Below, piece after piece: positions 13,617 through 64,000 of a DNA stretch of 64,000 nucleotides (position 1 is the first letter of the stretch; every line of letters starts with the position of its first letter). The notes under the pieces were generated by a model that did no database searches, was not told where the DNA came from, and worked only from the letters and a program-made list of their open reading frames with translations. The stretch lies in NCBI GenBank assembly GCA_035196065.1, contig CP136575.1, positions 649,001 through 713,000 on the forward strand. Direction: 5' to 3'. This DNA comes from Sphingobium sp. (GTDB lineage: Bacteria > Pseudomonadota > Alphaproteobacteria > Sphingomonadales > Sphingomonadaceae). The position numbers were made by a program, and so were the translations under genes.

Positions 13617-14215
13617 GACAGCAATTCCTTTCGGTCGCGCAGGAAGGCAAGAAGGGGAAGAAGGGGAAGCCCGAGAATATCGAAATGGTCGCCTTCGATC
13701 CGGGTAAAGAGTTGCGCACCCTCTCCCTCGATCTGGTAACAACCGACGCAGTGGCGGATGCCATTCCAGTTCCGTTCAACATAGGAATCGATGAAAGCAT
13801 CGCTTAGTTTTCGGACATTGAGGCGCACAATCCCGACATGGCGCCAAACCGGTACGCCGGCAGCGGCAACAACAGCCGCACTGAAAAGGCGGTGCGACTT
13901 TCCCGACATTTCGGCCAATTGCGATTTCGCCATATCCGGACTTTGCGGCTTGTCGAAAAGCGGGCCATCATCAAGCGCCAGCATTTGGTCAGCACCGATG
14001 ACCAGTGTTGCGGGAAATTTGGTCGACATCTTAGTCGCCTTGGCTTCGGCAAGGGCATCCGCCATGTCACGCGGCGACAGGCCGTCGGCGGACAGAGCGT
14101 CTTTCAACGCCTCTTCATCGACCATTGGCGCCATGGCGTCAAAAACCAACCCCGCATTTTTGAGCATCGAAACGCGCGTAGCGCTGATCGATGCAAGAAT
14201 CAGAGGTGTCGTCAC
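13613..14215 (-). CDS. maf: Maf family nucleoside triphosphate pyrophosphatase
   Basis: Maf proteins hydrolyse non-canonical or excess nucleoside triphosphates (dTTP, UTP, modified pyrimidines) and are linked to septum control. The N-terminal signature reads LILASISATRVSMLKNAG, a variant of the usual LASxSPRRxxLL, and the conserved GADQMLALDD acidic block is intact. 200 residues. Overlaps aroE and ppsR by 4 bp each, making a tightly coupled ppsR-maf-aroE-coaE unit. Confidence 0.9.
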   Translation of the reverse strand: MTTPLILASISATRVSMLKNAGLVFDAMAPMVDEEALKDALSADGLSPRDMADALAEAKATKMSTKFPATLVIGADQMLALDDGPLFDKPQSPDMAKSQLAEMSGKSHRLFSAAVVAAAGVPVWRHVGIVRLNVRKLSDAFIDSYVERNWNGIRHCVGCYQIEGEGAQLFTRIEGDHFDILGLPLLPLLAFLRDRKELLS

Positions 14216-15045
14216 GGGATTTGCTCCAAGATCCGGCCCTGTCGTTCGTTGAACAGATTGATGATTGCAGCTGCGCTTTCTTCGATCGACCGCCGTGTCA
14301 CATCGATCACCGGCCAGCCATTGTCGGCAAAGATGCGCCGGGCATAGGAAATTTCAGCCTTCACCTTGTCTTCATCAACATAATCGGTGTCCGGCGCCTG
14401 ATTCAGTGACAGCAGCCGGTTGCGGCGCACCTGCACCAATCTGTCCGCACTTGTGACAAGCCCGACCACCATCGGACGTTTCAGCGTATAGAGCGCCGCA
14501 GGCGGGGGAGATTCCGGCACTAAAGGAATATTGGCGGTCTTATATCCGCGATTGGCGAGGTAAATGCTGGTCGGGGTCTTTGACGTGCGCGAAACGCCTG
14601 CCAGAAGGATGTCGGCCTGTTCCCAATCCTGATGATTCAGACCATCATCATGCGCGATAGTGAACTGAATCGCCTCAACCCGCGCAAAATAAGCGGCGTC
14701 AAGGGCATGTTGCCGGCCAGGGCGGGCCTTGGCCTGCTGACCCAAGACAGCGGAGAGGGCATCGGTAACGGCATCGAGCGCGGCAACAGTGGGCAATCCT
14801 AATGCCCGGCACCGGTCTTCCAGCTTCGTGCGCATCGTACCGCTGACCAGGGTGAACAATACAAGCCCAGGATTGGCCGCCACATCGACCAGGATGCGTT
14901 CAAGATGCGCTTCAGAGCGGACCATCGGCCAGAAATGCTTTACCGTTTCAACTTCATCGAACTGGGCCAGCGCCGCCTTGGCGATATTCTCCAGTGTTTC
15001 CCCGGTGGAGTCGGAAAGAAGGTGTAGATGGATACGGTTTTGCAA
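14212..15045 (-). CDS. ppsR: Pyruvate, phosphate/water dikinase regulatory protein (DUF299 kinase-pyrophosphorylase)
   Basis: Bifunctional ADP-dependent kinase and phosphate-dependent pyrophosphorylase that switches PEP synthase or PPDK off and on. The P-loop is GVSRTSKTP, preceded by the N-terminal LHLLSDSTGETLE typical of DUF299. 277 residues. It is the orthologue of the gene that faces hemE across the origin in Caulobacter and Rickettsia, and here too it diverges from hemE across the candidate origin. First gene of the leftward cluster. Confidence 0.93.
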   Translation of the reverse strand: MQNRIHLHLLSDSTGETLENIAKAALAQFDEVETVKHFWPMVRSEAHLERILVDVAANPGLVLFTLVSGTMRTKLEDRCRALGLPTVAALDAVTDALSAVLGQQAKARPGRQHALDAAYFARVEAIQFTIAHDDGLNHQDWEQADILLAGVSRTSKTPTSIYLANRGYKTANIPLVPESPPPAALYTLKRPMVVGLVTSADRLVQVRRNRLLSLNQAPDTDYVDEDKVKAEISYARRIFADNGWPVIDVTRRSIEESAAAIINLFNERQGRILEQIP

Positions 15046-15081
15046 ATCTCAGGTCCTTGCGGGACAGTCTTGTGGGGTAGC

Positions 15082-15090
15082 TGGGGATAA
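15082..15090 (-). promoter_or_regulatory. DnaA-box-like 9-mer
   Basis: Plus strand TGGGGATAA; reverse complement TTATCCCCA matches the DnaA box TTATCCACA at 8 of 9 positions. Lies at the ppsR-proximal side of the candidate origin. Confidence 0.5.
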
Positions 15091-15194
15091 ATCAAGGGAT
15101 GAAACGGTGGGCAGCTTTTCTACCCAGATCGTACCAGTTTCATCCTTCGATTCGGGCACAGACAATCCACAAGCGAAACCATCATTCCACAGCC

Positions 15195-15203
15195 TGTGAA
15201 TAA
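15195..15203 (-). promoter_or_regulatory. DnaA box (TTATTCACA)
   Basis: Plus strand TGTGAATAA; reverse complement TTATTCACA fits the relaxed DnaA consensus TTWTNCACA at all positions. Central in the candidate origin and the best single box. Confidence 0.65.
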
Positions 15204-15293
15204 CGGGGATGAATGTAATCGAATCGTGCCACTGCAAGCAACGGCAGGAGTCAATATGTTGGCAAAACAGGCATTCCCCCCTAAAGGCGCGAC

Positions 15294-15302
15294 TTACCCA
15301 CA
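15294..15302 (+). promoter_or_regulatory. DnaA-box-like 9-mer
   Basis: TTACCCACA matches TTATCCACA at 8 of 9 positions and lies 21 bp from the AT-rich tract, a usual spacing for a box that helps unwinding. Confidence 0.55.
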
Positions 15303-15323
15303 GACCATCATCTGTCATCATCC

Positions 15324-15350
15324 TTATATAAATATAGATATTATTGGATT
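15324..15350. other. AT-rich tract, candidate DNA unwinding element
   Basis: 27 bp with only three G residues and no C, directly before hemE, in an otherwise GC-rich genome. It is the strongest AT tract in the candidate origin and sits beside a DnaA-box-like site. It could instead or also serve the hemE promoter and leader. Confidence 0.5.
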
Positions 15351-15354
15351 CTCC

Positions 15355-24134: not shown

Positions 24135-24784
24135 CGGAAGATGAAGCGCGTCTATGGTTGTCGGCCAATCTTGATGTTTCACGTGAAACAGAGGAAAAGC
24201 TGGGAGCATTTGTCGCTTTCCTAATCGAAGAGGCCAAGCTGCAAAATTTGATATCTGCCGCGACTCTCAACCATATCTGGGCGCGTCACATCGTCGACAG
24301 TGCCCAATTGCTGCGCTTTGCCGAAAAGACGGGAAGCTGGATTGACCTAGGGTCAGGCGCGGGCTTTCCTGGTCTCGTCATTGCCTTGCTCAGCGATCAT
24401 CGCGTTACTTTGGTCGAATCGCGGGCTCGTCGTATTGACTATCTTTCGCGGGCAGTTGATTTTCTCGGATTAAAAGATCGGGTATGCATCGCAGGTTCGT
24501 CGATCGAACGCGTAGAAACTGCCCCATTTTCGGTCATTTCGGCACGCGCCTTTGCGCCTTTGCCCCGGTTGCTTGACCTTGCCGTCCGATTTTCCACAGT
24601 AAAGACCTTATGGTTGTTACCAAAGGGCAAAAATGCCGGTAAGGAATTGCATGAGGCGCACGGACGATGGAATCTCGACTTCAACGTCGAAACCAGCATT
24701 ACCGATAGCGAAGCGGGAATATTGGTTGGTCATGTTTTGGGTGAGCGCCCGAGGGCCAGCATGAAAGGACGGCGGAAACGATGA
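24131..24784 (+). CDS. rsmG: 16S rRNA (guanine-527-N7)-methyltransferase RsmG (GidB)
   Basis: SAM-dependent methylation of G527 in 16S rRNA; loss gives low-level streptomycin resistance. SAM motif [17 protein letters not shown] is near residues 74-90, with [22 protein letters not shown] before it. 217 residues. The N-terminal DVSRET (residues 15-20) is encoded by a perfect parS. Overlaps mnmG and parA by 4 bp each. Confidence 0.96.
24175..24190. promoter_or_regulatory. parS site 3 (inside rsmG)
   Basis: TGTTTCACGTGAAACA, an exact consensus parS, 341 bp from site 2 and about 0.6 kb before parA. It is in the same reading phase as site 2, so both encode V-S-R-E-T. Confidence 0.95.
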
Positions 24785-25563
24785 TCCGGATCGCCATAGC
24801 GAACCAGAAGGGTGGCGTGGGAAAGACCACGACCGCAATCAACCTCGCTACCGCGCTTGCGGCTTGTGGTCGGCGCTGTCTGCTGATCGACCTCGACCCC
24901 CAGGGCAATGCGTCGACGGGGCTTGGCGTTAACGCATCGGACCGCAAATATAGCAGCTATGATCTGCTGATGGGCGAGGCGACGCTGGCTGAGGCTGTTG
25001 TAAAAACGATGATTCCCGGGCTTGATCTGCTGCCTGCAACGGTGGATCTTTCGGGCACCGAAGTTGAACTGGTCGACCATGCCGACCGGGCGCACAAATT
25101 GCAAAAAGCATTGGCGGAGGATGAGGCGCGCTGGGATGTCTGTCTGATTGATTGTCCGCCTTCACTCGGCATGTTGACGATTAATGCGCTGGTTGCGGCC
25201 GATTCGATCCTTGTTCCGCTGCAGTGCGAATTTTTCGCATTGGAAGGGCTCAGCCAACTGTTGCAAACGGTTGAGCGCATCCAGAATCGCTTCAATTCCT
25301 CGCTTTCGATCCTTGGCATTGCGTTGACCATGTTCGACCGTCGCAACCGCCTGACTGATCAGGTTGCTGAAGATGTTCGAAACTGCCTCGGCGGATTGGT
25401 GTTTGACACGGTAATACCGCGCAATGTCCGTCTGTCAGAGGCGCCCAGTCACGGTTTGCCGGCGCTGATCTATGATCATCGCTGTTCGGGATCGGAAGCC
25501 TATATGGGTTTGGCGCGAGAGCTGATCGGCCGCCTACCCGCCTCGAAGGAATTGGCTGCGTGA
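24781..25563 (+). CDS. parA: Chromosome partitioning ATPase ParA
   Basis: Walker-type ATPase that binds DNA as an ATP dimer and moves ParB-parS complexes toward the pole. The deviant Walker A KGGVGKTTTAINLA is at residues 10-23, Walker A' LLIDLDPQGNASTG, and Walker B DVCLIDCPPSLG. 260 residues, a short chromosomal (Soj-type) ParA without an N-terminal HTH. Overlaps rsmG and parB by 4 bp, so the three are translationally coupled. Three parS sites lie just upstream. Confidence 0.97.
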   Translation: MIRIAIANQKGGVGKTTTAINLATALAACGRRCLLIDLDPQGNASTGLGVNASDRKYSSYDLLMGEATLAEAVVKTMIPGLDLLPATVDLSGTEVELVDHADRAHKLQKALAEDEARWDVCLIDCPPSLGMLTINALVAADSILVPLQCEFFALEGLSQLLQTVERIQNRFNSSLSILGIALTMFDRRNRLTDQVAEDVRNCLGGLVFDTVIPRNVRLSEAPSHGLPALIYDHRCSGSEAYMGLARELIGRLPASKELAA

Positions 25564-26504
25564 GCGACACTGAAAAGCCATTGCGCAAGAAGATGGGTCT
25601 TGGGCGGGGACTTGATGCCCTTTTGGGCGAGGTCTCACTCGATCGAACGGCCGATCGTGTTGCGGGCGGTGGCTCAACAGAGAGGCCCGTTGGTCCGCCT
25701 CCGACCAATACAGAAGGCGTCAGCACTATTGCGATTGCCGATATCCACCCGAATCCGGCACAGCCGCGCCGCCATTTCAGCGAGGAATCGCTGCAGGAAC
25801 TGGCGGCGAGCCTGAAACGGCACGGTTTGATCCAGCCGATTCTCGTTCGTCCGCATGGTGCGGGATACCAGATTGTTGCCGGCGAACGGCGTTGGCGTGC
25901 GGCGCAGCGAGCGCAACTGCACAATGTCAAAGCGATCGTGCGGGAGCTTTCGGACGAAGAGACGCTCGAAATTGCGCTCATCGAAAACATTCAGCGCCAG
26001 GATCTGAACCCTATTGAAGAAGCAGAGGCCTATCGCAAACTCTGCCAGGATTTCGGTCATAGCCAGAGCGAGCTTGCCGCGATCGTCGAAAAATCGCGTA
26101 GCCATGTGGCAAATATGATGCGCCTTCTCGACCTGCCGGTGCTTGTCCGCGAACTGGTGGTTGAGGGCAAAATCAGCATGGGTCATGCGCGTGCGCTTCT
26201 CGGGTCGGATGATAGCGCCCGTCTGGCGGCGATTGTTGTGAAGCAGGGACTTTCGGTCCGGCAGACCGAGGCGCTCGTGCGCAAGTCCCGCGTTGAAGAA
26301 GGCAAGGTAGCCAAGCCGCGAATCGATGCGGGCGGCGGCGATGCCGATATTCGCGCCGTGGAGCAGCATTTGGGCGACCTTCTCGGTCTTAAGGTACGAA
26401 TCGTCCATGATGGTTCGGGTGGAGCTGGTGCGGTGACTTTTGAATATCGCAGCCTTGATCAGCTCGACATGCTGTGCCAGCGGCTCACAGGCGAGCAATT
26501 CTGA
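25560..26504 (+). CDS. parB: Chromosome partitioning protein ParB
   Basis: CTP-dependent DNA clamp that loads at parS and spreads. N-terminal KKMGLGRGLDALLGE, CTP-binding motifs NPAQPRRHF and GERRWRA, ENIQRQDLNP, the helix-turn-helix around SQSELAAIVEKSRSHVANMM, and a C-terminal dimerisation domain. 314 residues. Start is GTG at 25560 overlapping the parA stop. Last gene of the mnmE-mnmG-rsmG-parA-parB run; a hairpin follows the stop codon. Confidence 0.97.
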   Translation: MSDTEKPLRKKMGLGRGLDALLGEVSLDRTADRVAGGGSTERPVGPPPTNTEGVSTIAIADIHPNPAQPRRHFSEESLQELAASLKRHGLIQPILVRPHGAGYQIVAGERRWRAAQRAQLHNVKAIVRELSDEETLEIALIENIQRQDLNPIEEAEAYRKLCQDFGHSQSELAAIVEKSRSHVANMMRLLDLPVLVRELVVEGKISMGHARALLGSDDSARLAAIVVKQGLSVRQTEALVRKSRVEEGKVAKPRIDAGGGDADIRAVEQHLGDLLGLKVRIVHDGSGGAGAVTFEYRSLDQLDMLCQRLTGEQF

Positions 26505-63257: not shown

Positions 63258-64000
63258 TCAGTTGGCCCAGTAGACATATTCCTGATCCTTGCGCCAAGGC
63301 GCGTTGAGCGGAACGTCGACGCGGATCGGTGCTTCCAGCAGTCCGGGCCATAATGGTTTGGGCAGGCCGGCATTTTGTTCCTCGATCATTCGGCGCATCA
63401 TGGCTACGCGTTCGGGTTCCTGCGCAGCCAGGTTCCTCTGTTCGGTGGGGTCGATCGCCAGATTGTAGAGCCAGACCTTGTTGGGCCGCTTGGCGACCTG
63501 CAGCTTCCAGTCGCCAGCGCGTACAACGCGATAGTCGCCCGATCGCCAGAAGGTGATCTCGCGCCGCTCTTTGGGATTGAACAGGTTATAGCTGTCCATC
63601 TTGCGGTCGCTCGGCACCTCCGCCCCCGCGGCCGCAGCGATTGTCGCGAACATGTCGAGATGCTGGGCGACGTCGGGGCGGGTTGTGCCAGCTGGGATCG
63701 TCGCTGGCCAACGCATCAGCAACGGCACGCGAATGCCACCTTCAAAAAAGGTGCCCTTATATCCCCGATAAGGCTTATTATGGTCGGCAATCCCTGTGTA
63801 CCAAGCGCCGCCATTGTCGCTGGTAAAGATCACCAGCGTATTTTGGTCGAGCCCCGTGGCCTTCAGTTTCGCCAATATGTCACCGATCCGACGATCGAGC
63901 TGGCGGACCATTGCGCCATAGACGCGCTGGGTGTGATCCTTGATCTGCGGCAGCGCGTCATAGTCCGATTTCAGCGCCTGCAGCGGTGTGTGCGGCGCAT
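63258..64000 (-). CDS. Sulfatase (C-terminal part, cut by the window edge)
   Basis: The frame is open from the right edge, so this is the C-terminal 247 residues of an arylsulfatase-type enzyme. Recognisable blocks are APHTPLQALKSDYDAL, RQLDRRIGDILAKLKATGLDQNT, FTSDNGGAWYTG with a metal Asp-Asn pair, and YRGYKGTFFEGGIRVPLLMRWP. The formylglycine Cys or Ser site lies off the window, so activity and class cannot be stated. It converges with tRNA-Cys. Confidence 0.88.
   Translation of the reverse strand, partial: APHTPLQALKSDYDALPQIKDHTQRVYGAMVRQLDRRIGDILAKLKATGLDQNTLVIFTSDNGGAWYTGIADHNKPYRGYKGTFFEGGIRVPLLMRWPATIPAGTTRPDVAQHLDMFATIAAAAGAEVPSDRKMDSYNLFNPKERREITFWRSGDYRVVRAGDWKLQVAKRPNKVWLYNLAIDPTEQRNLAAQEPERVAMMRRMIEEQNAGLPKPLWPGLLEAPIRVDVPLNAPWRKDQEYVYWAN

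What the first reader, a model, noticed from the sequence alone, without database searches (positions are those of the whole stretch)
15046..15354. Candidate replication origin between ppsR and hemE
Seen: the only gene-free stretch over 300 bp, three 9-mers within one mismatch of the DnaA box, an AT-rich 27-bp tract, three GANTC sites, and a switch from leftward to rightward genes exactly here. Known: in Caulobacter and Rickettsia the origin lies between hemE and the ppsR orthologue. Unlike Caulobacter, no full CtrA motif was seen, so control of initiation may differ.
Basis: partly seen in the sequence, partly recalled or inferred. Interest (0 to 1): 0.75.

Follow-up and report, generated by a model that had tools for sequence, protein, structure and literature searches.

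The report
Sphingomonad chromosome origin beside hemE
The 309 bases between ppsR and hemE are very probably where this sphingomonad starts copying its chromosome; this is the usual place in its bacterial class, and the only unusual part is a short three-base repeat next to the melting site that differs from the textbook form.

Summary
The candidate holds up as the chromosomal origin (oriC), of a known type. The genome is one 3,022,649-bp contig; dnaA lies 1.2 Mb away with no skew switch. The only two parS sites (up to one mismatch) lie 8.5-8.8 kb from hemE. GC skew switches in this region but cannot pin it: bootstrap 424-698 kb, best fit 606-616 kb. Comparison is the strongest evidence: 123 of 126 genomes of the order with both genes keep ppsR/hemE divergent, 305-991 bp apart; the other three seem to lie at contig ends. 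In the genus, 29 of 29 regions align, with 2.97 DnaA boxes each against 0.08 shuffled and no CtrA motif. The block survives ppsR loss (11 of 11 genomes of one genus, 3 more loci) and, with weak boxes, hemE loss in one MAG. Sphingopyxis oriC at hemE is in print (PMC4741004). Less ordinary: between the last DnaA box and the AT-rich element lie short runs of CAA/CAT triplets rather than the canonical CTA DnaA-trio.

The parts
15046..15354 (.). Chromosomal replication origin (oriC), whole intergenic region
   Evidence: skew region, parS proximity, genus- and order-wide conservation, box cluster
15082..15090 (-). DnaA box TTATCCCCA (1 mismatch), ppsR side
   Evidence: conserved in the genus alignment
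15083..15099 (.). Conserved block GGGGATAAATCAAGGGA; function unknown (box flank, or promoter of the leftward operon)
   Evidence: Near-invariant in the 29 genus regions; its 16-mer 15084-15099 has no other site in the genome with fewer than 3 mismatches
15163..15171 (+). Weak DnaA box CAATCCACA (2 mismatches); several relatives carry CTATCCACA here
15195..15203 (-). DnaA box TTATTCACA (1 mismatch), central; many relatives carry TGTGGATAA
15149..15153 (.). GANTC (CcrM-type) site, invariant in the genus alignment
15221..15225 (.). GANTC site
15248..15252 (.). GANTC site
15347..15351 (.). GANTC site
15250..15267 (+). Conserved block GTCAATATGTTGGCAAAA; possible -35 region (TTGGCA) of the rightward operon, or origin element
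   Evidence: only perfect match to GTCAANNTGTTGGCAA in the genome, two more with one mismatch; its TGTTGGCA core persists in genomes without ppsR
15294..15302 (+). DnaA box TTACCCACA (1 mismatch), next to the melting region
15306..15323 (+). Triplet tract CATCATCTGTCATCATCC, candidate DnaA-trio region (published trio rule met, spacer 11 bp after the box)
15324..15350 (.). AT-rich duplex unwinding element, 24 of 27 A/T
14212..15045 (-). ppsR (PEP synthase / PPDK regulator), left flank
   Evidence: NF003742
15355..16389 (+). hemE (uroporphyrinogen decarboxylase), right flank
   Evidence: TIGR01464
23820..23833 (.). parS site, perfect; one of only two in the genome
24176..24189 (.). parS site, perfect
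24781..26504 (+). parA and parB
   Evidence: ParA-family hits below their cut-offs; TIGR00180 parB_part 204 bits, over cut-off

Best explanation
This is the single chromosomal replication origin of a Sphingorhabdus-type sphingomonad, of the hemE-linked alphaproteobacterial type. DnaA binds three to four imperfect boxes spread over about 220 bp; the box at 15294, pointing at the AT-rich tract, probably anchors a DnaA filament over the CATCATC triplet tract that opens the duplex at 15324-15350. GANTC methylation may modulate it; CtrA does not act through its usual full motif here. ParABS about 9 kb away probably segregates the new origins. Shown: sequence features, conservation, skew region, synteny. 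Inferred: DnaA binding, melting site, methylation effect, ParB action.
For: Two-arc GC-skew fit on 80 stretches of 12 kb puts the switch between 648 and 686 kb (686-724 kb fits almost as well) and the terminus near 2.12 Mb, about half a genome away. A second species (G005) gives ori 251-373 kb with hemE at 344 kb. Only two parS sites in the genome (up to one mismatch), 8.5-8.8 kb from the start of hemE; in the 37 genus genomes of a cut-off listing, 57 of 75 parS sites share a contig with hemE and all 57 lie 5.5-9.7 kb from it, the other 18 being on other contigs. DnaA boxes 2.97 per region against 0.08 shuffled (29 genus regions; 23 have three or more) and 2.29 against 0.05 (75 order regions; 34 have three or more, at least one has none); GANTC 3.3 against 1.2 and 4.5 against 1.2 (the two sets overlap). 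123 of 126 order genomes with both genes keep the divergent pair with a gap of 305-991 bp. The block persists without ppsR in 11 of 11 genomes of genus g12, 1.7 boxes against 0.05 shuffled, and in L162, L194, L204; it persists in weaker form without hemE in L261. Hyphomonas marker frequency peaks near hemE, with parAB about 7 kb away (passages of PMC6650430).
Against: No experiment on this organism was available. With finer data the best skew break is 606-616 kb, not 664 kb, and the 618-kb local minimum is deeper than the one near 662 kb. In species G004 the sampled skew fit gives ori 2.46-2.63 Mb with hemE at 2.69 Mb. The boxes here are all imperfect, whereas a cluster at genome 1447019 has two perfect ones. 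L162 and L261 have no box within one mismatch.
Confidence: 0.93

Rival explanations
1. The region is only the divergent promoter of ppsR and hemE, and its conservation reflects transcription signals.
For: It lies between two divergent operons; the block at 15250 holds a TTGGCA that could be a -35 element, with CTAAAG after a 16-bp spacer. The leftward genes (maf, aroE, coaE, dnaQ) and the rightward ones remain in at least some of the genomes that lost ppsR or hemE, so promoter roles for some blocks are not excluded.
Against: The block persists in genomes that lost ppsR and in one locus that lost hemE (L261). A DnaA-box cluster, excess GANTC and a triplet tract with an AT-rich element are not promoter features. 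parS and skew point to this region independently.
Confidence: 0.04
2. The origin lies elsewhere within the region the skew allows (for example near 618 kb), and hemE/ppsR synteny is a relic.
For: Two-arc fit marginally prefers 606-618 kb (sum of squares 47153 at 618 kb against 45781 at 664 kb, GC and TA skew together); GC bootstrap interval 424-698 kb on a grid of 400-1000 kb; local minimum at 618149.
Against: Positive skew at 618-642 kb may be a local insertion: a gene with a weak DnaA-family hit, probably of an insertion sequence, sits at 632406 (insertion itself not tested). In 610-649 kb no place has three DnaA boxes within 300 bp. parS and the conserved region are at 664-673 kb.
Confidence: 0.02
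3. The origin is next to dnaA (genome 1,879,360) or at the DnaA-box cluster at 1,447,019.
For: Many bacteria have oriC beside dnaA (established knowledge); the 1,447,019 cluster has two perfect boxes.
Against: Both lie within the positive-skew arc and have no parS. The fumC cluster is present in only 6 of 30 genus loci examined. dnaA is reported not to be near ori in Sphingomonadales (PMC8116508), although PMC4059872 mentions a dnaA gene near the predicted hemE origin of Novosphingobium PP1Y.
Confidence: 0.01

Closest known systems
hemE-linked oriC of Sphingopyxis (S. granuli TFA and relatives; DoriC entries for most Sphingomonadaceae)
   Same: Intergenic region at hemE, conserved gene order, several DnaA boxes and an AT-rich DUE (passages of PMC4741004)
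   Different: Different genus; here a genus- and order-wide base-level footprint, loss-of-neighbour tests and the triplet tract are added
Caulobacter crescentus Cori / Rickettsia origin (conserved gene cluster, Brassinga et al. 2001; paper not held, known here through the citation in PMC4741004)
   Same: Origin flanked by hemE (PMC6650430 passage); parAB near by and GANTC control in Caulobacter are recalled
   Different: No CtrA motif in the 309 bp; none in 29 genus regions, 1 in 75 order regions
Basal unwinding system (BUS) with DnaA-trios, Bacillus subtilis
   Same: DnaA box, short spacer and triplets leading into an AT-rich element; the published search rule is met in 29 of 29 genus regions
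   Different: The triplet is mostly 5'-CAT/CAA-3' (3'-GTA/GTT-5') instead of 5'-CTA-3' (3'-GAT-5'), in short runs with phase breaks; across the order only 19 of 75 regions meet the rule

Membership tests
Alphaproteobacterial hemE-linked oriC | Lies between hemE and the ppsR orthologue | tested here: met
Alphaproteobacterial hemE-linked oriC | Cluster of DnaA boxes beyond chance | tested here: met
Alphaproteobacterial hemE-linked oriC | AT-rich unwinding element | tested here: met
   most AT-rich 27-mer of the window (sequence only; melting not tested)
Alphaproteobacterial hemE-linked oriC | GC-skew switch at the site | tested here: inconclusive
   Region fits; bootstrap 424-698 kb, best fit 606-616 kb
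Alphaproteobacterial hemE-linked oriC | parABS within about 10-12 kb | tested here: met
Alphaproteobacterial hemE-linked oriC | Replication starts here in living cells (marker frequency, autonomous replication) | not testable with these tools
   Needs reads from growing cells or a plasmid assay
Caulobacter Cori (CtrA-controlled subtype) | CtrA sites TTAA-N7-TTAA overlapping the origin (motif recalled) | tested here: not met
BUS / DnaA-trio unwinding module | DnaA box (up to 2 mismatches), spacer 0-16 bp, at least 3 triplets with central A on the trio strand | tested here: met
   29 of 29 in the genus (about 10% shuffled); the six rows printed have spacer 11 bp and 5 triplets. Order: 19 of 75 (3% shuffled). 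Rule from PMC8287927 (passages)
BUS / DnaA-trio unwinding module | Preferred trio 3'-GAT-5' (5'-CTA-3' on the box strand) | tested here: not met
   Tract here is CATCATC; CTA tracts appear in some other genomes, e.g. L273, L279, L322
BUS / DnaA-trio unwinding module | DnaA side chains of the base pocket (Asn187, Arg202, Glu228 in B. subtilis) | tested here: not met
   Own DnaA: Met and Lys at the first two, Glu kept; Asn at 187 in 1 of 30 DnaAs of the order. PMC10721633 says these residues are not universally conserved, so this is weak against membership
BUS / DnaA-trio unwinding module | DnaA opens the tract in vitro | not testable with these tools
   Needs strand-separation assay

The most novel reading that the evidence does not exclude
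Sphingomonadales origins carry a deviant DnaA-trio tract: short runs of C-led triplets that read mostly CAA/CAT (3'-GTT/GTA-5' on the captured strand) in most Sphingomonadaceae seen and CTA in some deeper lineages. If the tract is bound as trios, base capture by DnaA does not need the central amino-bearing base that B. subtilis DnaA needs, and the code has drifted within one order.
Probability: 0.2. Interest if true: 0.6.

Novelty: new member of a known kind. Interest (0 to 1): 0.3.

Why it matters
It fixes the origin, and so the replichores and strand frame, of this genus. It also supplies a family of aligned origins in which single elements can be tested. The neighbour-loss cases show that the block is kept without ppsR, and in one case without hemE. 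The CAA/CAT tract is a natural test of a stated open point, whether DnaA-trios without a central adenine exist (suggested in PMC8287927).

Tried and rejected
DnaA pocket co-variation: I asked whether the residue aligned to B. subtilis Asn187 tracks the triplet. It does not. Of 30 DnaAs, the 20 of the own family have Met 4, Val 9, Phe 4, Tyr 1, Ile 1, Asn 1 and the 10 of other families have Tyr 5, Phe 5 (counted by eye). CTA tracts occur with Phe, Tyr and Val (G051, G070, G090), CAA/CAT tracts with Met, Val and Phe.

Canonical BUS for the whole order: only 19 of 75 regions and 3 of 11 in g12 met the published rule; of the 5 of 9 hits in the 'far' set (8 of other families, 1 deep member of the own family) only L273 lies clearly in the expected place.

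Simple counting of CWW triplets: in the genus CAW 112 against 33 shuffled and CTW 56 against 57; in the order 145 against 87 and 109 against 80; in g12 and the far set both are only modestly above shuffles. The lag test was preferred. It does not show a continuous triplet array: lag 3 is enriched, but lag 6 only weakly (308 against 283) and lag 9 not (225 against 235), while lags 7 and 10 are (334 against 267, 280 against 221). Rows are related, so z-scores are not probabilities.

Fine skew mapping to the 309 bp failed. The two conserved blocks (15083-15099, 15250-15267) could not be assigned to a protein; an IHF site was considered by eye and not supported.

Full report
WHAT WAS CHECKED. The window is 649001-713000 of a single-contig genome of 3,022,649 bp, completeness 100. 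Named relatives closest by HemE include Sphingorhabdus and other Sphingomonadales. The candidate is genome 664046-664354. The three DnaA-like 9-mers, the AT-rich tract, the gene names and the divergent arrangement are as stated; GANTC occurs four times rather than three, and the 'only gene-free stretch over 300 bp' claim is not upheld by a crude ORF tiling.

GENOME-SCALE EVIDENCE. On 80 evenly spaced 12-kb stretches the best two-arc split puts the skew switch between 648 and 686 kb, with 686-724 kb almost as good, and the opposite switch near 2.12 Mb. Adding contiguous data around the candidate shows the limit of this: the cumulative skew has a deeper local minimum at 618 kb, the least-squares optimum is 606-616 kb, and the GC bootstrap interval is 424-698 kb on a search grid of 400-1000 kb. 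So skew supports the region, speaks against dnaA (1,879,360) and does not choose the 309 bp. In two other species of the genus, sampled with 20 stretches each, the fit brackets hemE in G005 and misses it by about 60 kb in G004, where skew is weak. parS (up to one mismatch) occurs twice in the whole genome, at window 23820 and 24176, beside parAB. In the 37 genus genomes of a listing that was cut off, 57 of 75 perfect parS sites share a contig with hemE, and all 57 lie 5.5-9.7 kb from it; the other 18 are on other contigs. Three of 45 genus genomes had no perfect site, each 63-88% complete.

COMPARATIVE EVIDENCE. Of 44 HemE places in the genus, 30 loci were fetched and 29 include ppsR (in L090 the contig ends first). 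The 302-334 bp between the matched parts align throughout, with blocks far more conserved than the stretches between them. Boxes within one mismatch average 2.97 (0.08 shuffled), GANTC 3.3 (1.2 shuffled), full CtrA motifs 0 of 29. Of 80 named loci from the order, 75 show the divergent pair with a similar gap; one ends at a contig edge and four lack ppsR in the flank. In an even draw of 137 genomes of the order (at least 95% complete), 137 have HemE and 126 ppsR; 123 of the 126 are divergent neighbours 305-991 bp apart. The other three look like contig-end cases: in G180 and G062 ppsR starts at base 157 and 60 with hemE at the far end of the same contig (whose length was not printed), and in G079 each gene lies near the start of its own contig. 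The 11 without ppsR all belong to one genus, g12.

NEIGHBOUR-LOSS TESTS. In all 11 g12 genomes the 420 bp upstream of the HemE match still have at least one box within one mismatch, 3-9 GANTC sites and the TGTTGGCA core; a triplet-like tract and an AT-rich stretch are seen by eye. L194 and L204, whose genomes gave no ppsR match, show the same; L162, also without a match, keeps the layout but has no box within one mismatch. Conversely L261, from the MAG of L159, has ppsR, the block, then a relative (by eye) of the window's UPF0093 gene (PF03653) and rho, with hemE gone from there; its boxes have two mismatches. The hemE of that MAG lies behind another gene, with no box within one mismatch in the 600 bp upstream. 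The block thus depends on neither neighbour, though the hemE-loss case is a single MAG. Promoter roles for the genes that remain are not excluded.

MECHANISM. The hemE-side module is the best clue: box, short spacer, triplets, AT-rich element. In the genus it meets the published BUS search rule in 29 of 29 regions (about 10% of shuffles); the six rows printed show an 11-bp spacer and five triplets. Across 96 distinct windows from 109 regions of the order (7 regions gave no window), C is followed by C three bases on 415 times (330 expected, sd 11) and is depleted at lags 2 and 5; control windows chosen in the same spirit elsewhere in the regions show nothing at lag 3. But lag 6 is only weakly enriched, lag 9 is not, and lags 7 and 10 are, so these are short triplet runs with phase breaks and a 10-bp spacing, not one continuous array. 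Rows are related, so the z-scores are not probabilities. The letters differ by lineage: CTACTACTAC or CTACCACTACTACTT in L273 and L279, CATCATC in this genus, CAACA-type in many Sphingomonadaceae. B. subtilis DnaA reads the central base through Asn187 and tolerates cytosine but poorly guanine or thymine (passages of PMC10721633). Own DnaA has Met there and Lys at Arg202, but residue 187 does not track the tract across 30 DnaAs, so the simple co-evolution story is not supported.

LITERATURE. oriC at hemE with conserved boxes and DUE is in print for Sphingopyxis (PMC4741004, passages), is predicted near hemE (and a dnaA gene) in Novosphingobium PP1Y (PMC4059872, passages), and marker frequency peaks near hemE in Hyphomonas (PMC6650430, passages). 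ctrA is reported as dispensable in Sphingomonas melonis, and dnaA as not conserved near ori in the order (PMC8116508, passages). I did not find a description of the Sphingomonadales triplet tract in searches (listings, open-licence papers only); supplements could not be read.

VERDICT. An origin of a known kind, well supported; new member rather than new type. The open and testable part is the triplet tract.

Noticed in passing
genome 1447019-1447056 (L045:11261-11298; L325): Directly behind a fumarase-like gene (fumC, named by eye) lies a 38-bp triple DnaA-box cluster, two perfect boxes in the same direction with a one-mismatch box inverted between them, about 783 kb from the origin. Within 160 bp behind the gene it is present in 6 of 30 genus loci examined (L325, L326, L330, L334, L343, L351) and no box was found in the other 24; a possible DnaA-titrating or reactivating site.
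   Followed up: partly
genome 205743, 632406, 1090570, 2492192: Four genes with the same weak DnaA-family score (32.7 bits), probably the ATPase of one insertion sequence (a guess); one lies in the 618-642 kb stretch of locally positive skew.
   Followed up: no
genus g12 of the order (G118, G121, G125, G131, G151, G161, G162, G163, G174, G175, G179): No ppsR match in any of the 11 sampled genomes of one small-genome sphingomonad genus, while the origin block stays.
   Followed up: partly
L159 and L261: In one Sphingomonas MAG hemE is absent from the origin while ppsR, the UPF0093 gene and rho remain in place.
   Followed up: partly
window 63258-63911: Sulfatase-like ORF matches only the C-terminal part of PF00884 although the frame starts inside the window; possibly a broken or frameshifted gene near the window edge.
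   Followed up: no
DnaA of the own genus (L002, L302, L304, L306): Four DnaA AAA+ domains of the own genus score 182-194 bits against PF00308, compared with 227-242 for ten genomes of other families of the order, so DnaA seems to have diverged in this lineage.
   Followed up: partly
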